This document shows positions 4,090 through 39,298 of a stretch of 41,526 bases of DNA, piece by piece (within the stretch, counting starts at the first letter, position 1; each line of letters opens with the position of its first letter). This DNA is from a virus. The notes beneath the pieces are model-generated. The model did not search any database, was not told the origin of the DNA, and saw only the letters and a program-made list of their open reading frames with translations. The position numbers and the translations under genes are program-made. The DNA is taken from the IMG/VR virus record IMGVR_UViG_3300028653_000003, positions 1 through 41,526 of that record. The stretch is one strand, 5' to 3'.

Positions 4090-4500
4090 ATGAATCTCTC
4101 CCTTACCCGATGTCACTGGGATATAGACGGAATATTCGGAGAGCTGCACTCAGAGCAAAGCCACTTGATTTGTGAGACTCTCGAGCACGCATACCTGCAC
4201 GGCGATACTTACTTTGCTAAGATCCCGCCTGGGGGATATATCTGCAAGCGTAGCCAACACCGGCTCCATGGCATGCAGGAAGACTTCGAGACATTCGAGG
4301 TCATGGGGGTGCCCGGCCATACTGGCCTCTTATTCCACTGGGGAAATTTCAACCGGGACTCCGAGGGCTGTATCCTGCTCGGTGAGGCTATCAAGATAAC
4401 CGAGGACAAAGAAGAGATGCTCACTAACTCCAGGAGAGCATTTGCTTCTTTTATGGCTTTACAGGACGGTTCGGATGAGTTTACACTCATAGTATCCTAG
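4090..4500 (+). CDS. DUF5675-like protein, candidate lysis enzyme (136 aa)
   Basis: The protein matches the DUF5675 pattern seen in many phage lysis cassettes: C-E-T-L-E near residue 30, IPPGGYICKRS at about 45-55, VPGHTGLLFHWGN at about 74-86, and DSEGCILLG at about 90-98. The spacing H-x-G-N...S-x-G-C resembles the catalytic His/Cys arrangement of YkuD-type L,D-transpeptidases, so a peptidoglycan-active role is plausible but inferred. A strong AGGAGG site precedes the ATG. It is the first gene of a probable lysis group that continues with small membrane proteins and a lipoprotein. No other endolysin was recognised in the window. Confidence 0.7.
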   Translation: MNLSLTRCHWDIDGIFGELHSEQSHLICETLEHAYLHGDTYFAKIPPGGYICKRSQHRLHGMQEDFETFEVMGVPGHTGLLFHWGNFNRDSEGCILLGEAIKITEDKEEMLTNSRRAFASFMALQDGSDEFTLIVS

Positions 4501-4940: not shown

Positions 4941-5274
4941 AGTCGTAGGGGATCTCATGGGCCTGGGTGAAACCGCAGTGGAGACAGCCGCGGAGGCTGC
5001 TGCTCCCTTTCTCGCTTACCCCGTGATTAAACAGATATGGGAAGCGCTCCTACATTGGATCTTTGTCACGCTCGGTGGCGCACTCGGAAAGCTTGCGGGA
5101 TACGTGGTGCTAGACATCGAGGAGTATCAAGCCATCAAAACAGCGTCGGACACCCTGCTCGCCCTGGATGCCGCGCGCACTGTAGGAGATCAACATGCGA
5201 TCCAAACGGCCAGTGATGCAGCTGATGATGCTGCCGCTGCTCTTATACACTATTACGGCTCTATCCAGTCTTGA
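4879..5274 (+). CDS. Putative membrane protein in lysis cassette (131 aa)
   Basis: The N-terminal 25 residues are Pro/Thr/Asn-rich. At about residues 45-80 lies a hydrophobic stretch (IWEALLHWIFVTLGGALGKLAGYVVL) that could span the membrane once. The C-terminal third is an Ala/Asp-rich helix. Small phage proteins of this design near endolysins are often holins, but the family was not recognised. The 3' end overlaps the next (lipoprotein) gene by 80 bases. Confidence 0.6.
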   Translation: MPTEPNQPLPTTNQPATYANKVVGDLMGLGETAVETAAEAAAPFLAYPVIKQIWEALLHWIFVTLGGALGKLAGYVVLDIEEYQAIKTASDTLLALDAARTVGDQHAIQTASDAADDAAAALIHYYGSIQS

Positions 5275-5593
5275 GGGCTGCGGAAGTCTTCAGGTCCCTG
5301 TCGTGATTAAAGACGAGTCGGTTTATTATCTGAAGGGCACCACGCAGCTCCCGCCTAGTGACGACGACCCGACATACGCCACCATGATGCACTTCCTGAC
5401 CTCGGGTAAGACACCAGTGACCCGCTATCAGTGGAATGCCATAAGCAAGGGTAAGGCATGCATGGATCTCTCAGCATTTGCAGATTTCAATGTTGAGATT
5501 GCGAAACTGTGCAGCCAGGTCCCGTGTAGCTATAAGCTCCAGGCTATTTTGCCGAGGTTAGTCGCGAGGCTGAAGAGAGAGTCTCTCTACTAG
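5195..5593 (+). CDS. Lipoprotein-like, o-spanin candidate (132 aa)
   Basis: The start ATG is supported by AGGAG six bases upstream. Residues 1-29 look like a lipoprotein signal: MRSKRPVMQ, a hydrophobic core, then LEGC with Cys 29. The Glu in the lipobox is unusual. The mature part begins with a short polar linker and VVIKDESVYYLKGTTQLPP. Embedding inside the 3' end of the upstream membrane gene recalls Rz/Rz1 arrangements, so an outer-membrane spanin-like role is possible but unproven. The last 50 bases overlap, tail to tail, the 3' end of the minus-strand Wzy_C-like gene. Confidence 0.55.
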   Translation: MRSKRPVMQLMMLPLLLYTITALSSLEGCGSLQVPVVIKDESVYYLKGTTQLPPSDDDPTYATMMHFLTSGKTPVTRYQWNAISKGKACMDLSAFADFNVEIAKLCSQVPCSYKLQAILPRLVARLKRESLY

Positions 5594-6737
5594 GCTTTCG
5601 TACCAGTGCCTCGGCTAATCCGCACACGAGCACAATGCATAAGCAGTGTATTGGCATCCGCAGGGGATAGTTAAATAATCCAAGCGTACAAAAGCCCATG
5701 AGAGCACCAAAGAGGGCCGGGCGAGGCCACGCCACACTTGCGAGACGAGCCACAGCAGGTGCTATGCACAGCCAGCCGACGATCCCCCCCTCGGTTAGGA
5801 TCTGTAGCCAGTCGTTGTGGAGCCACATGAAATACTCTCCACCAAAATGATTAGTGGTCACTTGCTGGATGGGCAGGAGTATCTGAGAGGTTGAAAATCC
5901 CATGCCGAGTAGTGTGCTGCCACTCTTATCCCAGCAATCAATGGCCATACGCCAGATCATGAATCTTCCACTGTCCCCCCACAGTGCACCGCCTAGCAGC
6001 TTGTGGCTTACTAAAAGCATCAAACCGGCCAGTAAAAGGGTGCCTAGACCACTCAAAAGCCATGCTTTTCGAGGGGTCCGAGCCACAAAAACAGCAGCTG
6101 TAGTCACGCCCAGTACTCCCCACGGTACACTCGCCTCAGTTCGCCAGATCATGAGCAGGGTAAGCAGCCAGCTCCCGCACATGAAGGCCATCTTTGCGCG
6201 AAAGTTATTACGACATATGGTGCCCGCTGTAAACCCCCAGGCGATAGGAAGCAGGCAGGCTAGTAGTCCAGCCGCCATGCTGGGGTTGCCGAACCATAAC
6301 CCATTGAGTGCTGGGTGTGGCAGAGTAACAAGTGCAAATGTGCCTACGGCCCATACGAGCGATAAAAAGACCAGTATCCCCCGCTTCATGCTCTGAGTAA
6401 TTAGGGCGAATAGGGCGGTGCACGCCACAACCTCGAGCACTCCCGAGAAAGCATTCTTTTGGAGGGCCATGAGTGTAATGATGTCGTACGATCTCAGAAA
6501 GGGCTGATACGGCCAGGCCGCTATCGCGAGCATACTAACCAGACAGTAGAGCAGGCCAGGGAAATAGAACCAGCTCGTGCGCCTCGCCACCCAGCCTGAA
6601 AACCCAGCGGCCGCGAGAGTAAGTATAAGCGCCCACTTCGATAGCCAGGTGGCACTCCAGAAGTTTCCCACCCCAAAGAATAATACCGCTACGCCTACTG
6701 CTAAGATAAGCCACGATTCCCACGTCATCTTTCTCAT
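5544..6737 (-). CDS. O-antigen ligase/polymerase-like (Wzy_C) membrane protein (397 aa)
   Basis: This is an integral membrane protein with about ten predicted spans. Its C-terminal half has the Wzy_C / O-antigen ligase signature: SGRFMIWRMAIDCW (about residues 256-269), LLGMGFSTS (276-284), then a periplasmic loop with WLHNDWLQILTEGGIVGW (305-322). These Arg and His positions are those expected of the WaaL/Wzy glycosyltransferase fold. The start at 6737 overlaps the nuclease stop (ATGA) and has GGGGGA upstream, so the 16 residues before it are excluded. It is the last gene of the early block. In temperate phages such enzymes alter host O-antigen (for example phage D3). Here no lysogeny genes are seen, so receptor alteration or superinfection exclusion during lytic growth is the best guess. 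Confidence 0.72.
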   Translation of the reverse strand: MRKMTWESWLILAVGVAVLFFGVGNFWSATWLSKWALILTLAAAGFSGWVARRTSWFYFPGLLYCLVSMLAIAAWPYQPFLRSYDIITLMALQKNAFSGVLEVVACTALFALITQSMKRGILVFLSLVWAVGTFALVTLPHPALNGLWFGNPSMAAGLLACLLPIAWGFTAGTICRNNFRAKMAFMCGSWLLTLLMIWRTEASVPWGVLGVTTAAVFVARTPRKAWLLSGLGTLLLAGLMLLVSHKLLGGALWGDSGRFMIWRMAIDCWDKSGSTLLGMGFSTSQILLPIQQVTTNHFGGEYFMWLHNDWLQILTEGGIVGWLCIAPAVARLASVAWPRPALFGALMGFCTLGLFNYPLRMPIHCLCIVLVCGLAEALVRKPSRETLSSASRLTSAK

Positions 6738-7042
6738 GATAATCCCCCGTATAATAGTTTCAGATCGGCCAGATGTTTCGGCCACGTTTTAGGTGTGCTG
6801 GAAAGACTCATGCCCCCGGCTCTCGTGTGCCGGTCCAGTTTGAGCTGCTGTAAAAGTGTTGGGACAGAGCCGTCAACTTTGAGTTCGTTGCGGATACTAT
6901 GGCCCTTGAGGCAGATAATCAGATCCGCAACACCCTTCCGCGCCCGCTCCTGGGTTGCTATAATGTCCACATCAGCCCCAAAAGCTAGCTTCAGATCCTC
7001 AATAACTTTTTGCTTAAACTTTCCTTCAGCTTGCTGGGCCAT
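6734..7042 (-). CDS. VRR-NUC-like PD-(D/E)XK nuclease (102 aa)
   Basis: The small protein carries GVADLIICLKG followed by RNELKVDG and then QLKLDRHTRAGG. This is the core of VRR-NUC-type PD-(D/E)XK nucleases (D in the ADLI motif, then E-L-K). Phage members are thought to act on replication or recombination intermediates. ATG at 7042 is chosen because GGAG lies a few bases upstream and it overlaps the polymerase stop by 17 bases; a longer reading from 7081 is less likely. It is coupled by ATGA to the Wzy_C-like gene downstream. Confidence 0.72.
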   Translation of the reverse strand: MAQQAEGKFKQKVIEDLKLAFGADVDIIATQERARKGVADLIICLKGHSIRNELKVDGSVPTLLQQLKLDRHTRAGGMSLSSTPKTWPKHLADLKLLYGGLS

Positions 7043-8762
7043 ATTTCTCCAAATCAAACATGTTAGGGCCACTCTCGACACTCACGTCCATATCGAGCAG
7101 CTTTTTATCCCGGTGTGCCGCGATCATAATCCGCTTTATTTCTGGCAACAAGTGCATATCCGGTGGGGCCATGTTGATGAGGAGTTCATCGTGCACCGGC
7201 AAAACCATAAACGATTCTGGCCCCGCATATTTCTTGAGATACGCCCCGATCTCACAAATCGCCAGTTTTAATATCTCCGCACACCCACCTTGAATTCTGT
7301 AGTTGAATGCCTTGTATTCAAACCCAGGGTCAAAGTAGAAGCGTCTACCGAGCCAGTCCATTCCGTATGGCTTACACGTGCGCTGGAGCATGTAGGAGTA
7401 TGCCGCGGTCTTCTGCCCCTGCTCGTCGATAGCATCAGCGATAGTCCTTGCCACGCGCTCACTCACGCCTAAAGTCTGCGCAATGCGCGGTATTCTTGCC
7501 CCGTATTGTTTGGCAAAGCGTCCGTTCTTAGCCAGACTCCGTAGCACCCCAGCGATGTCGGCCACTTCCTGATGCAGATCCGCACCCTCTTGTATGCGCT
7601 TAATCATGGGTAGGTCCTCGGCCTCGTCAGCACTCTTACGCAGTTCCATCTGCGAGTAGTCCATGGAAACTATCACGCAGCCTGGATGCGCGATGAATGC
7701 CCGCCGCACTGGAAACTGTGGGTCTTCCTCCTCGTCCGTTGACCAGTTCTGGCAGCTAGGATCTGAGATGCTCATGCGGCCTGTCGTTGCTCGGTTCTGG
7801 TTGATCGAGGGATGAATGATGCCGTTATGCTCAAACTCTAGGAATTTTTCCCAGTAGGTGGACAGACGCTTTTTTGAGCGACGTATACGTAATAACGCTG
7901 CAACCACACTATGTCCTTCACTGCCCTTAAGACTATCCTCTGTGAAAGAGGCATTGCCCAGTTCAGTCTGACCATAATGTATTCCATTGGCGCCAAAGAT
8001 GGGTTGGAGAGTCTTTCGGCTATCCACGAATGGTACAGACGTAAGAGCCTCGAACTCTCTTGTGGCTTCGACCAAACACCTTTTCTCATACTCTACTCCT
8101 CTGTTACAATACCCGACGTCTACGAGTAGCCCGTGCCGCTCCATATCGAATAGATGTGGCAGCACCGCTTTCTCCAGCTGGACGACCGGCTTAATCTTTG
8201 TGGGACTTGATACGTCCCAGTGCTTGAATACTTCCACCTGATGCTGTCGTAACTTCCACGATAGCCACGCATCTTGCTCCACGTACGGGACAATCAATTC
8301 GTCGGGCGCCTTGTGGTACATGTTCTTATTGCCCCGCTGCTTTAACCACTCAAGCATCGGTTTATACTTGCTCTCGCCTATTCTCTCAGCACAGGCCTGA
8401 AGACTGTAGGATAGATAGTTGTTCTTCTCGATCCGGGCATTAACCTCGGAGTCCCAGACTTCACCCATCACCTCGGCATCAAACTGAGTGTGCAAGAATC
8501 CCAGCTCGAATTTGGCGTTATGAGCACAGTACTTGATGCGTGGATTAGAAAAGAACAGCCTTATGAGCGAGGGAAGCAGGGGATCTTTGTCCAGTTTTAC
8601 GCTGAACCTATCGCCCCGGGTGTTCGTGAACCCCAGGATGAATGCCCTAGCCCCGCTGAATGGACGTAGCCCATCGGTCTCAAAATCCATGCCGACAGCA
8701 CCCCCAGGTCCCTTGGAGATGTTGTCAGCATGGATTGCAAAGTCTCTGAGACTAAGAAGCAT
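7026..8762 (-). CDS. DNA polymerase, family A (Pol I-like, 578 aa)
   Basis: This is the replicative DNA polymerase of the phage, with an N-terminal 3'-5' exonuclease. Exo I is DFE (D26, E28). Exo II is HNAKFE, with E86 where D is usual. Exo III is YVEQD (Y160, D164). In the polymerase part, motif A is DYSQMELR (D368), motif B has R408, K412, F416 and Y420 with RxxxK(x7)YG spacing, and motif C is HDE (524-526). The residue equivalent to E. coli Pol I 762 is Phe (F416). At 578 residues it is shorter than T7 gp5. No ribosome site is visible before ATG 8762, and no other start fits after the upstream in-frame stop. The leader has competing inverted repeats. Confidence 0.95.
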   Translation of the reverse strand: MLLSLRDFAIHADNISKGPGGAVGMDFETDGLRPFSGARAFILGFTNTRGDRFSVKLDKDPLLPSLIRLFFSNPRIKYCAHNAKFELGFLHTQFDAEVMGEVWDSEVNARIEKNNYLSYSLQACAERIGESKYKPMLEWLKQRGNKNMYHKAPDELIVPYVEQDAWLSWKLRQHQVEVFKHWDVSSPTKIKPVVQLEKAVLPHLFDMERHGLLVDVGYCNRGVEYEKRCLVEATREFEALTSVPFVDSRKTLQPIFGANGIHYGQTELGNASFTEDSLKGSEGHSVVAALLRIRRSKKRLSTYWEKFLEFEHNGIIHPSINQNRATTGRMSISDPSCQNWSTDEEEDPQFPVRRAFIAHPGCVIVSMDYSQMELRKSADEAEDLPMIKRIQEGADLHQEVADIAGVLRSLAKNGRFAKQYGARIPRIAQTLGVSERVARTIADAIDEQGQKTAAYSYMLQRTCKPYGMDWLGRRFYFDPGFEYKAFNYRIQGGCAEILKLAICEIGAYLKKYAGPESFMVLPVHDELLINMAPPDMHLLPEIKRIMIAAHRDKKLLDMDVSVESGPNMFDLEKYGPAS

Positions 8763-8770
8763 AATTTGAG

Positions 8771-8872
8771 TTGGCCCTGGGACAGTTTCGAGCTGTCGTT
8801 TCGAGTAAACTGGGCTGTGCCCGCTGTCTGGGCCAACCGCCTCGCGTAATACCCACTATACTACCAGGGCCA
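8771..8872 (-). promoter_or_regulatory. Polymerase leader with competing RNA stems
   Basis: In the 123-base gap before the polymerase gene, plus-strand TTGGCCCTGGGACAG (8771-8785) is complementary to two upstream elements. These are CCAGGGCCA (8864-8872; 9 bp perfect) and CTGTCTGGGCCAA (8824-8836; 7 bp plus 5 bp with a bulge). In the minus-strand mRNA both would pair with the same segment, which ends about 8 bases before the ATG. The start lacks a Shine-Dalgarno site. The layout suggests translational or transcriptional control, but no known riboswitch was recognised. Confidence 0.45.
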
Positions 8873-8885
8873 TTCCAGATTAAAG

Positions 8886-9698
8886 TTAATATTCTCCGTC
8901 TGCCTGCCCGACTACTTGTGCCTCTACCACTACCGGGCGTGCTGCAGTCACTGATGACTCTGTCGGCAGGTCCTCGCGGTCGTCGATTTTGTACCTACCC
9001 GCGGCAAGCATAGCGAGCCAGCTCTCGGCACTCGCTAGCTCTTCCGCTGATGCGGCAAGAGTGCTCTTTGTGTCGATTGTCGGGACGCCATAGGTGTTAG
9101 TGTCTTTCTTCTCTTTCTTGACTCCCATGCCAATGAATGAAGAGTATGGTTTCTTGCGAAAGAAAACCTGCTTATATAGATGTGTCGCAAGTGTGCGGCC
9201 CGCATTCATCCCGGTACTCTTGAACCGGATTAGGCAGGGGAAATCCTCGCCCTTGTCGAGATCGCTCTTTAACAACACAAAGAAGTTAAATGTATGAAAC
9301 CGCTTGACTGACAGTTTTTCTTCCATGCCCTCGCCTGGAAGTTTCTCGTTCTGTTTATTGAGCGGCTGCTCGTGCAAGAATTTGAACCCGCCATCCGTGA
9401 CGTTATAGGTCCGAAGCGTCTTGAACATCTTAAGCGGCAGAAATTGCACGGGCTTATCTAGCCCGCCTAGCCGCTCCTCGGTCTGCATATTCATGATGTC
9501 ACCCAGCTTGGCTTTGTCGTCGCCAACCAAGGCACTTGTGTTCTGCATCACTTGGATTGATGGGATAACTAGGTCTTCCGCATCTACTCCAAGCTCATTG
9601 AGAGCAAGCGCGCGCTCCTCGGCCTCTGCCTGAATAGCAACCGCTCGCTGAGACAAATCGTCAGTCTGTACTGCAACACCCTTTTCTTCTTTCTTCAT
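8886..9698 (-). CDS. Putative ssDNA-binding/recombination-associated protein (270 aa)
   Basis: The sequence begins with a helical acidic region, followed by LGVDAEDLVIPSIQVMQNTS, then KLGDIMNMQ and KPVQFLPLKMFKTLRTY. This order (IPR/IPS..lmQ..S, G-D-I, then a P-L beta core) is seen in phage replication-region proteins often labelled ssDNA-binding. The C-terminus is Ala/Glu-rich and ends in acidic residues, as in many SSB-like proteins. It lies just upstream of the polymerase gene in the same block. ATG 9698 is chosen over 9713 because AAAGGA is well spaced. The function is inferred and not certain. Confidence 0.5.
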   Translation of the reverse strand: MKKEEKGVAVQTDDLSQRAVAIQAEAEERALALNELGVDAEDLVIPSIQVMQNTSALVGDDKAKLGDIMNMQTEERLGGLDKPVQFLPLKMFKTLRTYNVTDGGFKFLHEQPLNKQNEKLPGEGMEEKLSVKRFHTFNFFVLLKSDLDKGEDFPCLIRFKSTGMNAGRTLATHLYKQVFFRKKPYSSFIGMGVKKEKKDTNTYGVPTIDTKSTLAASAEELASAESWLAMLAAGRYKIDDREDLPTESSVTAARPVVVEAQVVGQADGEY

Positions 9699-9728: not shown

Positions 9729-10160
9729 TCACCGGGTTTTTCGGAAGCTCAGTCTGGGCGTCATCTTTACCTCTGACACGCCAGGAATAGTTGGCTCGCC
9801 CTCGCCACGTTCTTTGGCAAGGTCGAATTGTTCTTTTACATAAGCGTTGTATACTTGCGAAGACACGCTAATCATAATATCGAACTTTCCTATGGCCTTA
9901 AGATGATCATAGAAAGCCTTGCGGTCGTCGCCTTGCGGTAGTTTGGCCGATGTACGAAAGCCAATGGATACCGTGCCTGCGGGTGCTTTGTAGCTCCTGA
10001 TGTCGTTGGCCATCAGGCTCTCAAGCATCTTATCTTCTTTGGCCTCAAGCCGTGCTGTAATCTCGTGCTTTGCATCGGATGCCGCTTTCTCCTCGTCACG
10101 AAGGGTCGCGATCTCCTCGGCTAATGTGTTCATTTCTGCTAGTGATGTTTCAGTCGTCAT
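9729..10160 (-). CDS. Coiled-coil replication-module protein (143 aa)
   Basis: The N-terminal 55 residues are heptad-like and charged (LAEEIATLRDEEKAASDAKH), predicted coiled coil. A small domain follows with YKAPAGTVSIGF and DRKAFYDHLKAIGKFD. Proteins of this pattern occur between helicase and polymerase genes in other phages, usually with no assigned function; Gp157-like or nuclease-inhibitor-like proteins are loose comparisons. The start overlaps the helicase stop (ATGA). Confidence 0.6.
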   Translation of the reverse strand: MTTETSLAEMNTLAEEIATLRDEEKAASDAKHEITARLEAKEDKMLESLMANDIRSYKAPAGTVSIGFRTSAKLPQGDDRKAFYDHLKAIGKFDIMISVSSQVYNAYVKEQFDLAKERGEGEPTIPGVSEVKMTPRLSFRKTR

Positions 10161-11635
10161 ATGGTCTCCTTACCTCGGCTTATTACACTCGCATCGTGTG
10201 TCTCGCAAGCCGTAAGCGCAAAGCTTTTCTGAATTCCACCGCGCGCCCAAGTCAACACCGCCTCTTGTACATTGTCTTTTCGTATGAGCGCGGTCGCGAT
10301 CGTTTCGTCAATCGTCCCTTCGACGAAGTAGTGATAGTGTAAAACTTTCTCATGGCGCTCACTACCACTGCGATAATTACGCGCCATAGCCTGCATGTAG
10401 TGTAATAAACTCCAGCCGCGCATATAAAAATGTGCGCATCCTGCTACCTGCAAACCGTCGATCCCCTCACCGGCGGCAGCGGGGTTTGCGATGAGAATTT
10501 GCGCGTTGCCCTCGACGAATAGTTTTTTATTGGCCTGTTTTTCTTTGTCAGTCTTCTGCTCACCTGTAAGAAACGTGTGCGATATGCCCCGCTTCGTGAG
10601 TTCTTCTCCGATTCTCTTGTAAGTGGGCCTGAAAACAGTCCAGATAATCTGTTTCTGCGGTCCTATTGAATCAATCCGGTCCATCAGCGCATCCATGCGG
10701 GGGTTATCGTTAAACCATACGGGCTGCTCCTGCTCGTCGGGCTGGATGAATCCCGCCAAGATCTGCTGCATCCGTAAAGTCTTAACCATCTCGAATTCGC
10801 TCGACATGATTAAACCCCGGACCTCGGTGACGAATTCTTTTCGCATATCCTCGTATGCTTTTTTCTGGGGCGCTGACATCAGACATGGCACTGGGATCAG
10901 CGTGAGTGGCGGAAGGTCAAGGCACTCCGCGCGAGTTACTTGCTCGGTGTATGGGGCAATTTTCTCGCCGATCTCTTTCGCTGCCCACGGGTGCGGCACC
11001 CACTCTGGATAGCTGAACTGTCTTCCAGCATTTTTATCGTAGAAATACTGTCTTCTAAATGACCAAAAGCCCGATCCAAGGATCTGTGGATCAAGTGCCC
11101 TGTATTGCCCAAAGAGGTCAAGGAGCGAGTTTGGGCTTGGTGTACCAGTGAGCAAAAACCTGCGATCTGAAGCTGAGCAGAGAGGATAGACCGCCTTACT
11201 TCTCTTAGCCCCACTATCTTTGATTCTATGGCTTTCGTCGAGGATGATGATTTCCGGCTTAAACTTAAGCATTTTTTCATAAAAGTCCTTTATCTGAACA
11301 CTCTCGTAGTTCGTCACGATAACCGCAGGCTCTCCGGTCTCGAGTATCCGTGCAAGTTTTTCCGTCCTTTTCTTGCCTGTGTCAGTCAAAGCATGGACAT
11401 ATTTCACTGGTATCCGTGTAAACTTTTCACACTCAGTGGGCCACTGGGCACACACTGAGAGTGGCGCAAAGATCAGGGTCCGGCGAATCCGCTTATGAGC
11501 GTTGAAATCCTCGGCCAGTATCCGCCATATTGTTGCAGTCTTGCCCGTACCCGCTGCATGAAATAGTGCCCGGCATTTCTGTGCCCGCGCGCGCTCGACG
11601 GCTCGTTGCTGGTGTGCTCTAAGAACTAGCGCCAC
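10157..11635 (-). CDS. SNF2-family DEAD/DEAH-type helicase (492 aa)
   Basis: This is a superfamily 2 SNF2-type ATPase. Motif I is AAGTGKT (27-33), motif II is LDESH (132-136), motif III is LTGTP (162-166), and RecA-2 ends with QAMARNYRSGS (415-425) for motif VI. The core is compact, without chromatin domains, as in phage SNF2 helicases that assist replication or recombination. The start is GTG at 11635, overlapping a 35-codon ORF by 10 bases. The stop overlaps the next start by ATGA. Context with primase, polymerase and nuclease supports a replication role. Confidence 0.9.
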   Translation of the reverse strand: MALVLRAHQQRAVERARAQKCRALFHAAGTGKTATIWRILAEDFNAHKRIRRTLIFAPLSVCAQWPTECEKFTRIPVKYVHALTDTGKKRTEKLARILETGEPAVIVTNYESVQIKDFYEKMLKFKPEIIILDESHRIKDSGAKRSKAVYPLCSASDRRFLLTGTPSPNSLLDLFGQYRALDPQILGSGFWSFRRQYFYDKNAGRQFSYPEWVPHPWAAKEIGEKIAPYTEQVTRAECLDLPPLTLIPVPCLMSAPQKKAYEDMRKEFVTEVRGLIMSSEFEMVKTLRMQQILAGFIQPDEQEQPVWFNDNPRMDALMDRIDSIGPQKQIIWTVFRPTYKRIGEELTKRGISHTFLTGEQKTDKEKQANKKLFVEGNAQILIANPAAAGEGIDGLQVAGCAHFYMRGWSLLHYMQAMARNYRSGSERHEKVLHYHYFVEGTIDETIATALIRKDNVQEAVLTWARGGIQKSFALTACETHDASVISRGKETI

Positions 11636-11733
11636 ATTAGCCCCGCGACAAACCCCATGCCAAAGATCAAGGCCACGATCGTGAGCAGCGCAATAGCCGC
11701 ATAAACCTCAAGATAATCGTCTTTACTCTTCAT
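11626..11733 (-). CDS. Micro-gene for single-span membrane peptide (35 aa)
   Basis: This tiny ORF begins MKSKDDYLEVYAAIALL and continues as one hydrophobic segment to GLMWR. Its ATG lies 11 bases inside the end of the primase-helicase gene and has GGTGGA upstream. Its end overlaps the GTG of the SNF2 helicase by 10 bases. The perfect fit between two genes with overlaps on both sides supports a real coding role. The polar N-terminus and single span suggest an inner-membrane peptide; function is unknown. Confidence 0.6.
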   Translation of the reverse strand: MKSKDDYLEVYAAIALLTIVALIFGMGFVAGLMWR

Positions 11734-14149
11734 CTTTCCACCTTGTGCGGGAATAAATCCGCACTACTTTGCCGCCTATCCTTTTTGGTTTTGAGTTATC
11801 GACAACGGGTGAAAGCGCACCATGAACCATCATGTGACCAAACTGCTTTGAATTTGTGGCGCGGTAGTTATTCTCACCACACCATACTTTGTATTTATCG
11901 TAGGCCTCTTTGCAGCTGACATATGTTTCTTCTGGAACGGACAAACCACTTTCAAGGCACGAGCTGGCAAATTCCACCACACTATCCCCGGAAAGCAGTA
12001 CCTTTTCTTGAGCCTGTACTCCGGCTTGTCCTCCTCGGCTTACGACAAAGTGCCCACCGTTAGCTGATATATTTTCCTGGGTTCTGGACACAAGCATGCT
12101 CAAAATCTTAGGCGTATCGGCTGACAACCTGTCCTCTACGCCCTTATCCGGTACTTGGATCGAGTAATCGAATGGCACAACAAGAAGTCGGCGCCGGAGT
12201 GCCCGCCCATGTTCATGGAAACGAGGCGGTTTATTCGCCGAAAATATGAGCTTTGCCCTATTCGTTAAGTCAAAGGGATGCTCTCCCTTGCGCTCTACCT
12301 CGATTATCCCGCCAGCACTGAGGTCTTTCACTATATTGCACTCCGATGGACTGAGATCGACACCCGACGACTCTTCTGAGATATTGACCAGTTTACCTTC
12401 CAGACTCGCAGGAGAAAACCTATTCCCACTCAATTGAGAAAGAGAAACCGAGCTGAAATTCGCTGCGCCTACCAAGCCCCTCAAAATGTGCATGAGGGTT
12501 CCCTTGCCGTTAGCCCCCTCGCCTATAAAGTAAGCGAACATGTGATCGTCGTATTCTGGCCATAGGCAGTAGGCCATTATGTCCAGAACCGCATCCATCA
12601 GTTCTGTCCGGTTCTGCATCATCTCGGCAAGCCAGTCTAAGAATATCTCACTCGCCACCCCCGGCTCATAATCATACGGTAGGCAGTACTTGAACCCCAG
12701 CGTGGGGGAGTGCGGGAGTAGTTCGCCCTTTATGATATCAACCACACCGTTGCGGCAATTCAGTTTTCCCCGTATCGTGTCCTCAAAGATATCTTTCTCT
12801 TGCTCGTCAGTGAGCGCATTGGACCGCATAACTTTCTTGACGAATTCTACGCAGTGGGCCTCACGCAAGTGCTCTTCATAACCGACCTTCTTTTCTACCC
12901 AGGACTTTATCGTGAGCTGACCAGTGCGCCGGTAGTGGGTATCCTGAAACGTGAAGAGCCGATCCGGCTCGCATGTTACGTAGGCATGCTCCTGCCGGTA
13001 TATCTTTGCCAGGTCACTATAATGAGGATGCAGCGGCCCTTGCTTTCCAAGGACCCAGTACCCGTTTTCTGAGCTGGATATGTGCTCAACTGACTTGATT
13101 GCAAGCGGGGTATTAACCTTTGCGTGGTACTCGCACGTAGCGCAGCCCTCACCCCACGCGGCCGAAACCGTAGAGCACTTAGCAGCCCCATACCGGGTGC
13201 CATGATCCCACTTCTTCTCAAAATCTCCTCTAGCGAGAGACTGGGAGTTACAAGCAGCGTTGAATACGCCCTCTGCCACTTCCTTGGCGGTCTTCTCCTC
13301 AAACTTATCCCCAGGACTCATGGCTGACAAAAGTCCGAGAGCCGCCATAAACTGCGGCTCATGCACCTCCTCGGGATGCGCCACAAGCCACTTCATGAAC
13401 TCACACCCAGCCATCACATGCTGGAAGTCCGGCCGAGGGTAGTTGCGCCTTATCTGAGCAGGCAGGACATTCTCCTGGGCTACTTTGTCCAGCCCCGATA
13501 GTTTTACGATGTCCAGATCCAGCGGCACCAGGCCGGGGTTCTGGAGAATCACGCACTCTTTGATGAGCATCTTGCCCGTTTTTTTATCAAGCTTCTCGTT
13601 GATAGAATTCGGCATACGCAAGATCCGTGGAGCGTCCCATACCGAGGGGTCGGCATCACCTGGCAGGCCCACTTCGTTCATGGCAAGATTAATCCGGTGA
13701 ACCACTTCCGAGTAATCGGCCTTGGTTTCGTCGATATATTTACTCGACCTGATGGGGGTCTTAAGGTGTCCGATGATATGGAGGCCGTTGCCTGTGCTGA
13801 TAAAAACCAGGCTTTGGGGCGCCACATTTAGTGTCTTGGCCACTATAGGCAGGTAATCCCATGCCCGCGCTTGATCTACGTGGTCAATGTCAAAGGGTAG
13901 AATCGTCCGGTACTCAAACGACAGCTTTGTCCGTGCCGGTTTATCCCCACCTAGTCCACTGTGGTGTCCGGTACAGTAGAATAAATTCTTGACGTTACTG
14001 GGATCCTTCTTTCGTACTGACTCTATTATGGCGCCGTTATTCTGATAAATCTCGACGATATTATTTACGCAAAGGCCTGTAGGAAAGCCAACCGGGTGCT
14101 CGTGCCATACGGTTTTGCCATCAGTACGTAGTAGGACTATTTGTATCAA
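11723..14149 (-). CDS. Primase-helicase (AEP primase plus D5/SF3 helicase, 808 aa)
   Basis: The N-terminal third resembles an archaeo-eukaryotic primase/prim-pol domain: PFDIDH (D87, D89), STGNGLH (118-124), and a conserved DPSVWDAPRILRMPNS region near 167-182. A Cys/His cluster (C325, C336, C339, H342) may bind zinc. The C-terminal half is a D5-type SF3 helicase, with Walker A GEGANGKGT (543-551), Walker B-like LVNISEES (about 587-594), and sensor SANKPP (637-642). Such fusions prime and unwind the replication fork in phages and plasmids. The start is a TTG codon with GGGGGA upstream. The end overlaps the 35-residue membrane peptide gene. Confidence 0.9.
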   Translation of the reverse strand: MIQIVLLRTDGKTVWHEHPVGFPTGLCVNNIVEIYQNNGAIIESVRKKDPSNVKNLFYCTGHHSGLGGDKPARTKLSFEYRTILPFDIDHVDQARAWDYLPIVAKTLNVAPQSLVFISTGNGLHIIGHLKTPIRSSKYIDETKADYSEVVHRINLAMNEVGLPGDADPSVWDAPRILRMPNSINEKLDKKTGKMLIKECVILQNPGLVPLDLDIVKLSGLDKVAQENVLPAQIRRNYPRPDFQHVMAGCEFMKWLVAHPEEVHEPQFMAALGLLSAMSPGDKFEEKTAKEVAEGVFNAACNSQSLARGDFEKKWDHGTRYGAAKCSTVSAAWGEGCATCEYHAKVNTPLAIKSVEHISSSENGYWVLGKQGPLHPHYSDLAKIYRQEHAYVTCEPDRLFTFQDTHYRRTGQLTIKSWVEKKVGYEEHLREAHCVEFVKKVMRSNALTDEQEKDIFEDTIRGKLNCRNGVVDIIKGELLPHSPTLGFKYCLPYDYEPGVASEIFLDWLAEMMQNRTELMDAVLDIMAYCLWPEYDDHMFAYFIGEGANGKGTLMHILRGLVGAANFSSVSLSQLSGNRFSPASLEGKLVNISEESSGVDLSPSECNIVKDLSAGGIIEVERKGEHPFDLTNRAKLIFSANKPPRFHEHGRALRRRLLVVPFDYSIQVPDKGVEDRLSADTPKILSMLVSRTQENISANGGHFVVSRGGQAGVQAQEKVLLSGDSVVEFASSCLESGLSVPEETYVSCKEAYDKYKVWCGENNYRATNSKQFGHMMVHGALSPVVDNSKPKRIGGKVVRIYSRTRWKDEE

Positions 14150-14712: not shown

Positions 14713-14823
14713 TGGCGTTCCGTCATAAAAAGTACAGTCTTCGTCCACGTCGTGACTCCAGCCACAAAGACCGTCGCACCCTCCGCGCCTTATGAGCTGA
14801 ACATGTCGAGCTGCGTCTTGCAT
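14674..14823 (-). CDS. Small Cys-rich protein (49 aa; possible longer form with membrane segment)
   Basis: ATG at 14823 has AGGAAGG just upstream and gives a 49-residue protein with GGCDGLCGW and EDC, a possible metal site. A longer reading from 14919 would add 32 residues that form a membrane span (LFIVAGTIFLVGLW) plus an Arg-rich stretch. That form would overlap the PP-loop gene by 130 bases instead of 34. Both starts are possible. The stop overlaps the DUF3850-like start (ATGA). The C-terminus LINPVPADAGEK is echoed in the next protein. Confidence 0.55.
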   Translation of the reverse strand: MQDAARHVQLIRRGGCDGLCGWSHDVDEDCTFYDGTPLINPVPADAGEK

Positions 14824-15623
14824 AAGCCTTCCTCGTCTTCGTCTGTTGGCACTGGACCGCCAGAGTCCCACCAAGAAAATAGTTCCTGCCACGATGAAAA
14901 GTTTCGAGAACCAAACCATTCCTCACCGTCCTTCTGTTTTGTTCCTGCTTTCCGGTCCCACAGCCTTTGAAAAAGGCGTTTCCACAAAAATAGATACTTT
15001 GGCCACCTGGCAAACTCGTTTGCCCGCCCTTGCCTTGTCGCCGATGGACATCCAACACACCCCAGGCGCTTAAACCCCTCATCGTAAAGAGAACAATATT
15101 TGATCCCGTTGCCCCTAATAAACTCCCACACATCGGCGTCGGACCAATACAGGATCGGAGAAAGCGCCCATGTTTTGGTTTTGCTGTGCATTGTAATTGG
15201 CTTCCACCGCTTCGCCCTCGCCGCGCTTTCTGCTGCGCGAACACCTAACAGCATTACTGCGCCATGCGGTGCGGCAGTTTCCTTGTATTCCGCGCAACAC
15301 CACCGGCAGATGCGAGTAGGAAACCCTTTTTTCTCGGCATATTTGAAAAAGTTTCCGTGGGGCGAAAACAAAAACTTTACGTCAGGATGATGCTTTCGGT
15401 TGAATTGAACTAGCTCGGGCGGATCAATCGTCGTGACGTTGTAGTGCCATTTCACTCGAACGCCAGCAATCCGGGCCAGCTCCTTGATAACAACCGAATC
15501 CTTCCCCCCAGAGAAGGCCCCCAAAAAAACATCTTGTGGCTGGTGTGCACGAAGCAGCTCAACCGACGCGCGAACACGCTCGTCAAGAGAGAGGCCAAGC
15601 CCAGGAAGAACGGCTCCGCTCAT
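14790..15623 (-). CDS. PAPS reductase-like PP-loop enzyme (277 aa)
   Basis: This is an adenine-nucleotide alpha-hydrolase (PP-loop) protein: FSGGKDS at 37-43, then CRWCCAEYKE (Cys 106, 109, 110), GVRAAESAARAKR (127-139), and GCVGCPSA (Cys 189, 192). The Cys pairs could hold an iron-sulfur cluster, as in DndC and in many phage PAPS reductase-like proteins. The family reduces sulfonucleotides or transfers sulfur to nucleic acids. Partner dnd or ssp genes are absent here, so a DNA phosphorothioation role is not supported. Its 3' end overlaps the small Cys-rich gene, and its start overlaps the upstream stop (ATGA). Confidence 0.8.
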   Translation of the reverse strand: MSGAVLPGLGLSLDERVRASVELLRAHQPQDVFLGAFSGGKDSVVIKELARIAGVRVKWHYNVTTIDPPELVQFNRKHHPDVKFLFSPHGNFFKYAEKKGFPTRICRWCCAEYKETAAPHGAVMLLGVRAAESAARAKRWKPITMHSKTKTWALSPILYWSDADVWEFIRGNGIKYCSLYDEGFKRLGCVGCPSATRQGRANEFARWPKYLFLWKRLFQRLWDRKAGTKQKDGEEWFGSRNFSSWQELFSWWDSGGPVPTDEDEEGLCKTQLDMFSS

Positions 15624-18468: not shown

Positions 18469-18740
18469 GTTTGACTCTTTTCTGGTGAATCGCTCACCGT
18501 TTAGGCTAGCGGCGTCTAACCCATAGTATGTTTAAATTCAAGAATAATAACACGAACAGTACAAATAAAAGCATTGACTATATATCCTATGTGTGCCGGG
18601 CCACCAATTGTGGTTGCATCGGCATACTGCACGTGGTGTGCCACACTGCGATGCGTCGCGCTTGTGAGACAAATCGGGGGGTTACAGCGGTCTGGCGGGC
18701 AGCGGCAGCACGCCGGCAGGTGACAACGTGTAAAATAGTG

Positions 18741-18757
18741 GTGACAATTTTTGTCAC
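18741..18757. promoter_or_regulatory. Perfect operator-like palindrome
   Basis: GTGACAA and TTGTCAC flank TTT, giving perfect 7-bp arms. This size and symmetry are typical for a dimeric repressor or activator site. No phage regulator gene was recognised, so a host protein may bind here. Confidence 0.5.
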
Positions 18758-18849
18758 TTTGAGCGCATCGGGGTGTAACAGATATGTGAATTGAGCACAA
18801 CGGTCAGGGATTTAGGCAACCAAAGCGGTAGTGATAGGGTGCGCAAATG

Positions 18850-18874
18850 TTGACTGACATAGTAGGACAGTCAA
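18850..18874. promoter_or_regulatory. Inverted repeat TTGACTG / CAGTCAA
   Basis: Perfect 7-bp arms (18850-18856 and 18868-18874) are separated by 11 bases. The second arm runs into a GTAACAGATA repeat. It may be a protein-binding site or a small hairpin. Confidence 0.4.
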
Positions 18875-19284
18875 GTAACAGATAAACAGCGGAAAGGGTC
18901 GGGAGTGGCCTACGTTGTAGGGTTTGTAACTGTAACAATACCCCAAATACCCCCTATCGGTTACGGTTACAGCGGTGTATTGAAAGAGAAAAGACCTATT
19001 TGTAACAGATGCCTCTCCTACTCTGAAAAACATAAATATATATATAGTATAGTATAATAGTACAGTAACAGGGGGGGGTAGATAGGTAGTGTATATATAT
19101 ATGGGCGCCGTAGATTCAACTTCTTCTGTAACACTCACTGCGTCACAAACTGAGTCTCCCATTAACTACGTACACTTGACGCATCGCGCGTCGTGTAACA
19201 ATGCTATCTGTTACACCATTTGTTACTGTTACAGCCCATGCGCTATGAGTCAAAGCAAGAGAGTCAAGTATATCTATCAACGCT

Positions 19285-19338
<54 letters not shown>

Positions 19339-19552
19339 CATCACGATCCTCGATATATCATAGGCTAAATAAGATGGCCCCTAGGGGGTCTAGGCCTATT
19401 AAAAGCAGGACTAGGGGTACCCCCAAGATTAATCATGTCCTAAGGTTCGGCCCCTCCCCCCTCCGGTTGGCCGAATTCCCCCACATGTTTAACGCACTGT
19501 CCCACAATATTCCCCTTGCCCGATCCGGTATCCTCGCTTATGCTTTTGGAAT

Positions 19553-19900
19553 ATGCGTTTGTTGTTTCTTGCACTTTTGCTGATGTCCACTGCCGCGGTA
19601 GCGGATTTCAATCCAGCGCCCACAAGCGTAGGGTTATATAATTTTTCAACAGTCTCTGTGTCTAATCTCGCGGCCTCGACAATCGCTGCGAGAAACTTAT
19701 ACAGGGCCGGTTTAATAATTCAGAATAACGGTGGGGTGTCCGTAGTCATTAAGCCTGGAAGTGCGCCACAAAATGCCACTGATGGCATAGTATTGACCGC
19801 AGGGACCATGATCCAGTTAGTACCACCGCCAGTAGATTCTATCTGGGGCCTGAGTTCTGGGGCAAATGCGAAAGTCGTTTTAATCGAGAACGTTAAATAG
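19553..19900 (+). CDS. Exported structural-like protein with signal peptide (115 aa)
   Basis: Residues 1-17 are a clear Sec signal (MRLLFLALLLMSTAAVA), with cleavage likely before DF. The mature part resembles small phage structural proteins of the type RAGLIIQNNGGVSVVIKPGSAP..ATDGIVLTAG. These normally lack a signal peptide and occur as head or fibre accessories. It is the first gene of the rightward late block, just before the small terminase. No good ribosome site is seen, and the nearest promoter candidate would give an almost leaderless message. Confidence 0.65.
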   Translation: MRLLFLALLLMSTAAVADFNPAPTSVGLYNFSTVSVSNLAASTIAARNLYRAGLIIQNNGGVSVVIKPGSAPQNATDGIVLTAGTMIQLVPPPVDSIWGLSSGANAKVVLIENVK

Positions 19901-19909
19901 AGGTTGTGT

Positions 19910-20488
19910 ATGAAAGGATTCCAGATGAAAAGTTTGATCCTGGTTCTTCTCCTGAGTTTATTCCCGCTATCCGCGCTTGCAGATCTTGAGGGGGCACCGT
20001 ATATCCCGGAGATAGATGCGAGGTTTAATGCCGTAGAGCAGGGGAATCACTTCAAGACGACTTGTGGGAGCGTGGGGGGTGTGGGCTCATGCGATGGGCA
20101 CTGGGCACGGCAACTTGTGTCAGCCACGTATGACTTCTCAACTTTGACTGGCTCGAGCACACTCAACGCTGGAATTTATAACCTTGGTGTGAGTATCCCG
20201 GCGAATTCTATAATCACTGAAAGTGCGCTGTATTCGGGGATTAAGCCTAGCTCGGTGAATAGCGCTACCCTGGGATTTTACTGCCAGAACAGTGCTGACA
20301 TAATCACGGACACGCTTTACTCTAGCTACGGGGCCGCGGGTGTGGCTATCAACGGGTCATCGTCGGGAGCTACCGTAGGCAACTTCAAGTACATCACGGC
20401 GAAATGTGATGTGCATGCAAAGATCGCCACGGGGAATCTTATCGCGGGCCGCGTGACGGCATTCGTGGAGTACTGGACCCATCACTAG
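19910..20488 (+). CDS. Exported Cys-containing structural-like protein (192 aa)
   Basis: Two starts are possible. ATG 19910 (GAGGT upstream) and ATG 19925 (AAAGGA upstream) both lead into a Sec signal (KSLILVLLLSLFPLSALA, then D). The mature part is beta-rich with IYNLGVSIPANSIITES, a motif found in phage structural proteins. It carries four cysteines (CGSVGGVGSC, FYC, AKC) that could form disulfides outside the cytoplasm. It follows the first late gene by 9 bases. Role unknown; an exported virion or cell-surface component is inferred. Confidence 0.65.
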   Translation: MKGFQMKSLILVLLLSLFPLSALADLEGAPYIPEIDARFNAVEQGNHFKTTCGSVGGVGSCDGHWARQLVSATYDFSTLTGSSTLNAGIYNLGVSIPANSIITESALYSGIKPSSVNSATLGFYCQNSADIITDTLYSSYGAAGVAINGSSSGATVGNFKYITAKCDVHAKIATGNLIAGRVTAFVEYWTHH

Positions 20489-20502
20489 ATCTGGGGTCTT
20501 GC

Positions 20503-21078
20503 GTGGCCAAACGTAAAAAGGCTCTGGATGAACTCCGAGAGGACCTACCCACCGTCGTTGACATAGGACCAAAGCAGCCATCGCCATATCGGGAGATGTA
20601 CTCACTCGATCTTGCCAAAAGAATCGCTGATTACTACGGGCAGGGAAAAACACTCACCTGGATCGCCGCTCAGAGTGGCATGCCCGCTTACGGTACGCTT
20701 ATCAAGTGGTCTAAGGAACACGCCGAGTTGTCACGGATGCTTAGAGGAGTGCGCGAGGCACGAGCACTACACTACGAGAACTCAGCCATTGAGACCGCGG
20801 AGAATGCCTGCGGAAAAGATGCGGATCGCCTAAAGTTTGAGGCATACAAGTGGGGAGCCGAGGTCAATGACCCTGGTACATATGGAAAAAAGGTAACTCA
20901 CGCAGGGGACCAGACAAACCCGGTTGTGCTAAAGGTGGTCACTGGATTTGGAGAACCAAACTCGTGGCAACAAGAGCCTAAACTTAAAGCCGACGGAACG
21001 ATTGAGGTGGAAGCAGATGGCAAAGAAGGACAGATTGAAGAACAAGCCACTCCTAAATCTGAACCCACACTGGGTTGA
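20503..21078 (+). CDS. terS: Terminase small subunit (191 aa)
   Basis: GTG start. A helix-turn-helix-like segment (about residues 45-67: GKTLTWIAAQSGMPAYGTLI) is followed by WSKEHAELSRMLRGVREAR, the pattern of phage small terminases that recognise the packaging site. The C-terminal 70 residues are polar and low in complexity. Position directly before the large terminase (one gene between) supports the call. The last 62 bases overlap the next gene. Confidence 0.82.
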   Translation: MAKRKKALDELREDLPTVVDIGPKQPSPYREMYSLDLAKRIADYYGQGKTLTWIAAQSGMPAYGTLIKWSKEHAELSRMLRGVREARALHYENSAIETAENACGKDADRLKFEAYKWGAEVNDPGTYGKKVTHAGDQTNPVVLKVVTGFGEPNSWQQEPKLKADGTIEVEADGKEGQIEEQATPKSEPTLG

Positions 21079-21451
21079 GTTCACCGGACAGAAGGGCGTA
21101 CTCCGCGTGCTCAAACCCGGCGAAGTACTAGCGCGCGCCAGAGGTTTGATATTCTCCTGCCCCCGCTGCTGTAAGAGTAAAGAGACTGCTCACTTCTGCA
21201 TATTCCTATTCAAGCATCCAGATACCCCAGATGAGGTAAAGCCGCTGGGGCGCTTCTTACCAAGCATGAAAGAGGATGACCGTGGGATTCCGCAACTCGA
21301 AAGTTTCCACAGGCTGTCGCTATGGAGTGATAGTAACCCCACAACAGTTCCGCTACATCCCGACGGCATCGGGTGTGGTTGGGAGGGCTGGGTTAAGGAT
21401 GGAATCGTGTATTGGCCTACACGCTTAAGAGATAGGCTACTGAGGCACTGA
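21017..21451 (+). CDS. DUF6527-like zinc-motif protein (144 aa)
   Basis: ATG 21017 lies inside the end of the small terminase; an earlier start at 20948 would overlap more. The protein has FSCPRCCKS (about residues 45-53), RFLPS, SFHRLSLWSDS, TTVPLHPDGIGCGWEGWVKDG (about 116-136), matching phage proteins annotated DUF6527. Family members outside phages include BubE peptidases of bacterial ubiquitin-like operons, but a similar activity here is unproven. Phages often keep this gene beside the terminase. The stop overlaps the large terminase ATG (TGATG). Confidence 0.6.
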   Translation: MAKKDRLKNKPLLNLNPHWVEFTGQKGVLRVLKPGEVLARARGLIFSCPRCCKSKETAHFCIFLFKHPDTPDEVKPLGRFLPSMKEDDRGIPQLESFHRLSLWSDSNPTTVPLHPDGIGCGWEGWVKDGIVYWPTRLRDRLLRH

Positions 21452-31863: not shown

Positions 31864-32342
31864 CAGCCGCAGGAGTAGCCGTAGTAGGTGCGGGAGTTCA
31901 GATTTATGGCGCGATCAAGACGGCAAATGATCAAGCTGAGATGGATCTCCAAAGAGCCGCAATCGCAAACCAACAAGCCACTGAGATAGGTGAGCGCGAG
32001 GCTGCCAATGAGACCCTACGCAATCAACAGGCGTATAGGCAGAAGCTTCAGTTTGGCGCGTCGTTCGCGGCTACTGGGAGAGAAGGGACGGGCATTGGTT
32101 CACAACTCCAGATTCAGAACCAAACTGATCTCGCAAACATGATGTCAAACCGTGAGGCCGACTTTCAGGCCAAGATGCTCAAGCAACAAGCTGGTATTGA
32201 CACGACGCTTGCGGGACAGACTGAATCAGCTGGCGTGGTTAAAGCACTGGGTATGGGGCTAGGTGGGGCGACTCAAGCGGCAGGGTATCTAGCGCCTAGA
32301 TACGGGGGCACCCAGTCTATGGGCGCTTACGGGGGTGGATGA
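31851..32342 (+). CDS. Internal virion protein, gp14-like (163 aa)
   Basis: An N-terminal hydrophobic stretch (AAIAAAGVAVVGAGVQIYGA) is followed by a long Gln/Ala-rich helix with NDQAEMDLQRAAIANQQA, and a Gly-rich tail. This is the usual shape of podovirus gp14-like ejection proteins, which insert into the outer membrane during infection. The start lies within the end of the gp13-like gene, and the stop overlaps the next start (ATGA). Confidence 0.8.
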   Translation: MAAIAAAGVAVVGAGVQIYGAIKTANDQAEMDLQRAAIANQQATEIGEREAANETLRNQQAYRQKLQFGASFAATGREGTGIGSQLQIQNQTDLANMMSNREADFQAKMLKQQAGIDTTLAGQTESAGVVKALGMGLGGATQAAGYLAPRYGGTQSMGAYGGG

Positions 32343-39296: not shown

Positions 39297-39298
39297 CT

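What the first reader, a model, noticed from the sequence alone, without database searches (positions are those of the whole stretch)
5544..6737. O-antigen ligase/polymerase-like enzyme in a phage without lysogeny genes
The Wzy_C signature (R in SGRF, HND loop, TEGG) is intact, and the gene sits at the end of the early block. Known phage Wzy genes are used by temperate phages for seroconversion. A virulent phage would need it for superinfection exclusion, or to stop progeny binding to debris. It could pair with the glycan-binding fibre in the same genome.
Basis: partly seen in the sequence, partly recalled or inferred. Interest (0 to 1): 0.72.

Follow-up and report, generated by a model that had tools for sequence, protein, structure and literature searches.

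The report
Surface-sugar polymerase gene in lytic-looking phages
This phage carries its own version of a bacterial enzyme that builds or attaches cell-surface sugar chains; seven other uncultured phages carry related, very different copies, so these phages probably re-coat the host surface that phages bind to.

Summary
Window 5544-6737 (minus strand) encodes an intact 397-residue membrane protein. Its only Pfam match is Wzy_C (28.5 bits, E 1.5e-6; cut-off 31.7). Two positional orthologues in related phages exceed the cut-off (34.0 each), and the proven phage enzyme D3 Wzyβ scores lower (21.9). AlphaFold modelling with eight phage homologues gives the WaaL/RodA/FtsW (GT-C) fold: VIA Z 18.4 to O-antigen ligase WaaL, 11-12 to RodA/FtsW, 6.4 to the first unrelated chain.

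The gene is not a recent capture. It follows the same small nuclease-like gene, with a 4-bp overlap, in three of three related podoviruses (46% and 27-28% identity). Five more contigs carry divergent relatives. Eight of eight keep the WaaL-type Arg and His. Five of the eight were searched in 50,697 phage records without a match; two motif-prefiltered scans of 84,980 prokaryote species confirmed none. No integrase, resolvase or HTH_3 repressor was found in the three related records.

Most likely it polymerises or transfers lipid-linked surface glycan in the periplasm, remodelling the receptor during lytic infection, as D3 Wzyβ does in lysogens. Polymerase versus ligase, host and benefit are untested.

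The parts
5544..6737 (-). Wzy_C / O-antigen ligase-polymerase-like integral membrane protein, 397 aa
   Evidence: ORF and translation; Pfam Wzy_C 28.5 bits; orthologues in G001 and G004; WaaL-like fold, VIA Z 18.4
5898..5972 (-). GN1-type motif: SGR (R258) ... G278-M-G280
   Evidence: R, G, G invariant in 8 of 8 phage homologues; RX(11-24)GXG met in 8 of 8
5775..5819 (-). GN2-type motif HNDWLQILTEGGIVG (H307, E316, G318, G321)
   Evidence: H307, D309, W310, E316, G318 invariant in 8 of 8; exact HNX9GX(2-4)G in 4 of 8, with HS in 3, last G missing in 1
6734..7081 (-). small nuclease-like gene; its stop overlaps the start of the Wzy-like gene by 4 bp
   Evidence: PHROG 93 endonuclease E 8.4e-5; 4-bp start/stop overlap in 3 of 3 relatives
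7026..8762 (-). family A DNA polymerase, early operon
   Evidence: Pfam DNA_pol_A 164.8 bits; 67% and 50% identical in G001 and G004
10157..11635 (-). SNF2/DEAD-type helicase, early operon
11723..14149 (-). primase, early operon
   Evidence: PHROG 864 E 1.7e-69
5195..5593 (+). lipoprotein-like small protein, converging on and overlapping the Wzy-like gene by 50 bp
   Evidence: translation with N-terminal hydrophobic stretch and Cys; overlap 50 bp here and 53 bp in G001. Lipoprotein reading is inference from sequence
4090..4500 (+). DUF5675 protein of the lysis-side module
   Evidence: Pfam PF18925 72.3 bits
39293..41526 (+). tail fibre, N-terminal part (continues at 128-2060 across the contig ends); signal-peptide-like N-terminus
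   Evidence: PHROG tail fibre; join in frame; N-terminus

Best explanation
The gene encodes a phage-borne inner-membrane glycan polymerase/ligase of the Wzy_C (WaaL/Wzyβ) kind. Inferred mechanism: the protein sits in the host inner membrane with its active site on the periplasmic face. It takes the host's lipid-linked (undecaprenyl-diphosphate) surface-glycan units, with R258 holding the diphosphate and H307 as the catalytic His, and joins them with a different, probably inverted (beta), linkage or onto a different acceptor than the host enzyme does. The host surface glycan, the likely receptor, is thereby changed during a lytic infection, so that the same or sibling phages no longer adsorb (superinfection exclusion) and progeny do not stick to envelope debris. 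SHOWN here: intact ORF, Wzy_C match, WaaL/SEDS fold by prediction, conserved Arg/His, retention in eight phage contigs, fixed gene position in three. INFERRED: enzyme activity, substrate, linkage, receptor change, benefit.
For: Wzy_C is the best Pfam match of all 8 phage homologues. Experimentally proven D3 Wzyβ scores 21.9 and E. coli K-12 WaaL 50.0 on the same model, so the window's 28.5 lies between proven enzymes. Model with 8 homologues (pLDDT 72.2, pTM 0.75): VIA Z 18.4 over 293 residues, 3.9 A, to WaaL 7tpg; RodA/FtsW 11.2-12.4; next unrelated 6.4. Foldseek alone ranks RodA first (prob 1.00, E 0.01); with the earlier, poorer model (pLDDT 60.6) it ranks WaaL first (prob 0.99, E 0.018). 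Alignment to K-12 WaaL places R258 on R288 and H307 on H338. D3 Wzyβ needs Arg254, Arg270, Arg272 and His300; Wzy_C is reported in 9 of 11 Wzy from beta-linked O antigens; and D3 infection gives resistance to superinfection (PMC4815439 passages). Location is the D3-like one: D3 wzyβ lies between the tail protein and the endolysin genes; here it abuts the lysis-side module; in L105 it lies between a fibre-like gene and a GH25 endolysin gene; in VarioGold it faces the lysis cluster.
Against: Host and its surface glycans are unknown. The window protein alone is under the Pfam cut-off. The hhalign match to K-12 WaaL is not significant (prob 0.3) and there is none to D3 Wzyβ; D3 Wzyβ also lacks the ordered GN1/GN2 motif as written. 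The Arg corresponding by eye to E. coli R215 (a residue recalled as important) is Glu201 here, with R199 two positions before. In 5,000 block shuffles of the protein 80 contain the ordered motif, so the motif alone is weak evidence. No O-acetylase or Iap-like partner, as in D3, was seen. No expression data: the gene is in the early operon here but beside late fibre/lysis genes elsewhere.
Confidence: 0.55

Rival explanations
1. Carrier-state seroconversion: the phage can persist in cells without integration (phage carrier state or pseudolysogeny), and the enzyme protects carrier cells, so the benefit is that of lysogenic conversion.
For: All published phage Wzy cases that I saw are in temperate phages. 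Silas et al. discuss persistent virulent infection as a reason for LPS-modifying genes in lytic phages (PMC12373910 passages).
Against: No maintenance, partition or repressor gene was recognised; many ORFs have no assignment.
Confidence: 0.13
2. Envelope sabotage: the enzyme diverts or caps undecaprenyl-diphosphate glycans, limiting the lipid carrier and weakening the wall before lysis.
For: Adjacent to the lysis-side module; fold shared with RodA and FtsW.
Against: The residues kept are those of WaaL/Wzy; lysis genes are already present (DUF5675 here, Amidase_2 in G004, GH25 in L105).
Confidence: 0.1
3. Protein O-oligosaccharyltransferase (PglL/PglS-like) that moves a host glycan onto an exported phage or host protein, for example the signal-peptide-bearing tail fibre.
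For: PglL-type ligases carry a Wzy_C domain (PMC12800693 and PMC13228068 passages). Fibres of four of these phages start with a signal-peptide-like stretch, and in L105 the Wzy-like gene overlaps the fibre gene by 4 bp.
Against: The large C-terminal periplasmic domain described for PglS (residues 438-548) is absent: the phage protein ends at 397. Tail fibres are normally assembled in the cytoplasm.
Confidence: 0.08
4. Passenger host gene with no role in the phage.
For: Wzy_C genes are common in bacteria (11 of 14 control genomes ring, 9 over the cut-off).
Against: Orthologues at the same place in 3 of 3 relatives at 46% and 27-28% identity with a conserved 4-bp overlap; codon-position bias; five more divergent phage copies; no close bacterial relative in two prefiltered scans.
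Confidence: 0.05

Closest known systems
Pseudomonas phage D3 Wzyβ (NP_061525.2), O-antigen beta-polymerase
   Same: Phage-borne Wzy_C membrane protein of similar length (386 aa), essential Arg/His loop, located between tail-protein and lysis genes
   Different: D3 is temperate and carries integrase, Iap and O-acetylase; no detectable pairwise profile similarity to the family here; substrate known there, unknown here
VarioGold VG_p25 (O-antigen ligase family, Variovorax phage)
   Same: Wzy_C gene (411 aa) facing the lysis cluster
   Different: Temperate phage; about 31% identical to the D3-type proteins; its sequence was not compared with this family here
WaaL O-antigen ligase (7tpg; E. coli K-12 waaL)
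   Same: Predicted fold (Z 18.4); Arg288/His338 positions match R258/H307
   Different: WaaL works in bacterial LPS synthesis on lipid A-core; acceptor here unknown; sequence identity about 13% in the structural alignment
RodA/FtsW (SEDS) glycosyltransferases
   Same: Fold class (Z 11-12)
   Different: Lower structural score; no SEDS Pfam hit
Gnarl proteins of lytic coliphages (Silas et al. 2025)
   Same: LPS change by genes of lytic phages, with the same suggested benefits
   Different: 40-90 aa, said to be unlikely to have enzymatic activity themselves

Membership tests
Pfam PF04932 Wzy_C | Score at or above the curated cut-off (31.7 bits) | tested here: inconclusive
   Window 28.5; orthologues G001 34.0 and G004 34.0; five others 18.7-26.8; proven D3 Wzyβ 21.9 also misses it
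Pfam PF04932 Wzy_C | Conserved loop Arg and HX9-10G His | tested here: met
   R258 and H307 invariant in 8 of 8; GN1 8 of 8, HN/HS-X9-G 8 of 8
Pfam PF04932 Wzy_C | WaaL/SEDS (GT-C) multi-helix membrane fold | tested here: met
   VIA Z 18.4 to WaaL, 11.2-12.4 to RodA/FtsW, 6.4 to next; model pLDDT 72
WaaL O-antigen ligase | Transfer of lipid-linked O antigen to lipid A-core | not testable with these tools
   No assay; host unknown
Wzy O-antigen polymerase | Polymerisation of Und-PP repeat units | not testable with these tools
   No assay; fold match to WaaL does not separate polymerase from ligase
PglL/PglS O-oligosaccharyltransferase | Large C-terminal periplasmic domain after the Wzy_C part | tested here: not met
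   Protein ends at 397 after a terminal helix; PglS domain is 438-548; only Wzy_C found
Temperate-phage seroconversion module (D3 type) | Integrase / lysogeny functions in the genome | tested here: not met
   PF00589 0 of 6 records, PF00239 0 of 3, PF01381 0 of 3; contig completeness probable, not certain
Temperate-phage seroconversion module (D3 type) | Partner O-acetylase and alpha-polymerase inhibitor | tested here: inconclusive
   No acyltransferase among the 30 window ORFs scanned with PHROGs or the 19 window ORFs scanned with Pfam; an Iap-sized peptide (31 aa) cannot be excluded

The most novel reading that the evidence does not exclude
A phage-only branch of the WaaL/Wzy superfamily serves strictly lytic phages. 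In some of them it works with a Sec-exported, fibre-like protein (the fibre carries a signal-peptide-like N-terminus in the window, G001, G004 and L105): the phage glycosylates or re-coats the surface and/or decorates its own exported fibre, as a two-part receptor-occlusion system deployed before lysis.
Probability: 0.08. Interest if true: 0.85.

Novelty: new variant of a known kind. Interest (0 to 1): 0.55.

Why it matters
Phage-borne O-antigen polymerases are textbook examples of lysogenic conversion. A deeply diverged, apparently phage-restricted family in genomes without recognisable lysogeny genes would mean that lytic phages also keep a large multi-helix membrane enzyme to remodel the host surface. 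That makes it directly testable whether virulent phages exclude superinfection, or protect progeny from debris, by receptor editing. It also gives a motif (W-L/Y-H-N/S-D-W-L/I-Q) for finding more such genes, which standard annotation misses: PHROGs and NCBIfam are silent on the window protein, and the five of the eight proteins that were searched drew no match in the annotated phage collection.

Tried and rejected
Single-sequence pattern scans of viral contigs with P0001 and with the DNA polymerase found nothing confirmed; alignments worked better. Profile search of PDB sequences: no match at E<=10 with the 2- or 6-row alignment. The window's nearest named portal relatives and some polymerase relatives (10 records, among them Pelagibacter phages HTVC010P, Lederberg, HTVC028P and Baldr) carry neither the family nor Wzy_C: the gene is lineage-specific. 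The helicase alignment scan found only G001. A recent host-gene capture was considered and rejected (see rivals). Promoter/terminator scan 5000-9000: not above shuffles. LUZ100 (PMC10134795) and PMC12041424 came up in literature searches but concern host LPS genes as receptors, not phage-borne Wzy. A search for secreted or signal-peptide tail fibres listed four papers, none of which I opened. Papers: passages only were read for PMC9658991, PMC12373910, PMC4815439, PMC12502699, PMC12800693, PMC10269572, PMC13228068, PMC10134795 and PMC12041424; all others only as search listings. Searches that listed no virulent phage with its own Wzy_C gene, as far as titles, abstract starts and passages show: (one search listed 15 of 104, 12 of 20); two searches were for WaaL residues only.

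The GN1/GN2 motif control: of 784 ORFs of 250 aa or more in the held loci, 24 contain the ordered motif; 19 of these are copies of the family from overlapping loci, 5 are other ORFs.

Full report
CHECK OF THE OBSERVATION. The ORF at 5544-6737 minus is intact, ATG to TAG, 397 aa, hydrophobic (GRAVY 0.77), with SGRF, HND and TEGG as described. Its one Pfam hit is Wzy_C, residues 191-325, 28.5 bits, E 1.5e-6, cut-off 31.7. Reversed and block-shuffled copies hit nothing. PHROGs and NCBIfam are silent, and tblastn against 50,697 phage records finds no match at E<=0.01.

THE GENOME. The window is an IMG/VR virus record. Its two ends share 127 bp within a 120-bp tandem repeat of the tail-fibre gene, and the fibre frame continues across the join; the related record G001 has the same 127-bp end overlap. 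I take both as probably complete circular maps (a 127-bp overlap is what an assembler with that word size leaves; this is recalled knowledge). Portal, major head protein, terminase, DNA polymerase A, primase and helicase were identified. The nearest named portals are those of Pelagibacter podoviruses at about 35-40% identity. Phage_integrase: 0 of 6 records; Resolvase and HTH_3: 0 of 3 records. No tRNA gene.

RELATIVES AT THE SAME PLACE. G001 (42,186 bp; portal 79-80%, DNA polymerase 67%) has a 46%-identical protein directly downstream of the nuclease-like gene. G004 (40,681 bp; portal 47%, DNA polymerase 50%) has a 27-28%-identical one at the same place. In all three the start of the Wzy-like gene overlaps the stop of the nuclease-like gene by four bases (ATGA, TTGA, ATGA), and the gene converges on lysis-side genes: 50- and 53-bp overlaps in the window and G001, 220 bp from an Amidase_2 gene in G004. 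G004's ends do not overlap, so its completeness is not shown. Between the window and G001, 102 of 174 identical residues use different codons; differences by codon position are 169, 121 and 244 over 383 codons. Ten other records (seven named phages with near portals, three polymerase relatives) lack the gene, so it belongs to this lineage, not to all its neighbours.

A WIDER PHAGE FAMILY. The three-row alignment pulled in three further contigs (L094, L095, L096), and a DNA pattern for W-[L/Y]-H-[N/S]-D-W-[L/I]-Q pulled in six stretches: three already known, two new members (L105, L106) and one with no family match (L107). All eight proteins have Wzy_C as their best Pfam hit, at 28.5, 34.0, 34.0, 26.7, 18.7, 26.0, 20.5 and 26.8 bits (window, G001, G004, L094, L095, L096, L105, L106). 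Invariant in 8 of 8: W31, P164, R258, G278, G280, G300, W305, H307, D309, W310, E316, G318, P358, besides the start Met. The published GN1 motif is met in 8 of 8; GN2 exactly in 4 of 8, with Ser for Asn in 3, last Gly missing in 1. Five of the eight proteins were searched by tblastn in the phage collection: 0 of 5 found a match. Two scans of 84,980 prokaryote species with degenerate peptide patterns gave 56 and 7 pattern matches and 0 confirmed relatives. This prefilter sees only close relatives, so 'phage-restricted' is provisional. Neighbours vary: fibre-like gene and GH25 endolysin gene in L105, after a long tail gene in L106, near a small endolysin-like gene (by eye, no Pfam hit) and a primase gene in L094, among virion genes in L096.

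FOLD. With six rows the AlphaFold model has pLDDT 60.6; Foldseek's first PDB hit is WaaL 7tpg (prob 0.99, E 0.018, TM 0.32) and VIA gives Z 10.7. With eight rows pLDDT is 72.2 and pTM 0.75; VIA gives WaaL Z 18.4 (293 residues, 3.9 A), then seven RodA/FtsW chains at 11.2-12.4, then unrelated chains from 6.4 down. Foldseek on that model puts RodA first (prob 1.00, E 0.01) and does not list WaaL in its top 50. Both agree on the WaaL/SEDS class. They do not tell polymerase from ligase.

CALIBRATION WITH PROVEN ENZYMES. On Wzy_C, K-12 WaaL scores 50.0 and D3 Wzyβ 21.9, so the window protein lies between them. An hhalign alignment to K-12 WaaL puts R258 on R288 and H307 on H338, but with probability 0.3 only; Arg288 and His337 are listed as essential in E. 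coli WaaL in PMC10269572 (passage; the His numbering is off by one from the K-12 sequence held). D3 Wzyβ did not align. The position of E. coli R215 falls, by eye, on E201 here, a departure.

FUNCTION. Precedent: D3 Wzyβ changes the O-antigen linkage, needs the loop Arg and His residues, and D3 infection gives resistance to superinfection (PMC4815439 passages). VarioGold carries a Wzy_C gene facing its lysis cluster (PMC9658991 passages). Two Acinetobacter prophages change capsule linkage by their own Wzy, one of the two Wzy being of the Wzy_C family (PMC13228068 passages). All are temperate. For lytic phages, Silas et al. found small LPS-modifying proteins and suggested superinfection exclusion and avoidance of lysed-cell fragments (PMC12373910 passages). 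The present family fits that frame with a real enzyme class. In D3 the gene lies between the tail-protein and endolysin genes, much as here. Which benefit applies, and whether it is polymerase or ligase, is open. Small lipoprotein-like genes beside the lysis genes suggest a Gram-negative host, by inference from sequence only.

SIDE OBSERVATION. The window's fibre begins MRKLLVGLSLVVAIVCCVPNILHA, immediately before a region similar to tailspike N-termini of Salmonella phages (match from residue 37-38). G001, G004 and L105 fibre-like proteins also begin with a signal-peptide-like stretch; those of L094 and L106 do not. No signal-peptide predictor was run, only a simple hydropathy rule.

VERDICT. 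Observation confirmed; enzyme class well supported; role plausible, untested. A new variant of a known kind (phage-borne Wzy_C enzymes): divergent, at a fixed place in one podovirus lineage, present in other phages, with no lysogeny genes found.

Noticed in passing
window 39293-41526 (+) joined to 128-2060; G001 18615-21413 (-); L012 13272-14921 (-); L105 4558-6957 (-): Tail-fibre-like proteins begin with a Sec-signal-peptide-like hydrophobic stretch; in the window and G001 it directly precedes a tailspike-type N-terminal domain. Unusual for a cytoplasmically assembled fibre.
   Followed up: partly
window 41001-41526 and 1-127: 120-bp tandem repeat (4.4 copies, 96% matches) in the fibre gene; the contig ends overlap by 127 bp inside it, so the true repeat number may be larger.
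   Followed up: partly
window 14790-15623 (-): PAPS reductase-like gene in the early operon, no match in G001.
   Followed up: no
window 19904-20488 (+): Protein with a clear signal-peptide-like start at the head of the late operon, conserved in G001 (about 51%).
   Followed up: no
window 32339-34891 (+): 850-aa late protein without PHROG match, only 27% identical in G001 where its neighbours are 38-58%: fast-evolving virion-region protein.
   Followed up: no
OQ414636.1 4860-5297 (locus L100): Pelagibacter phage Baldr has an annotated putative acetyltransferase just upstream of its portal region.
   Followed up: no
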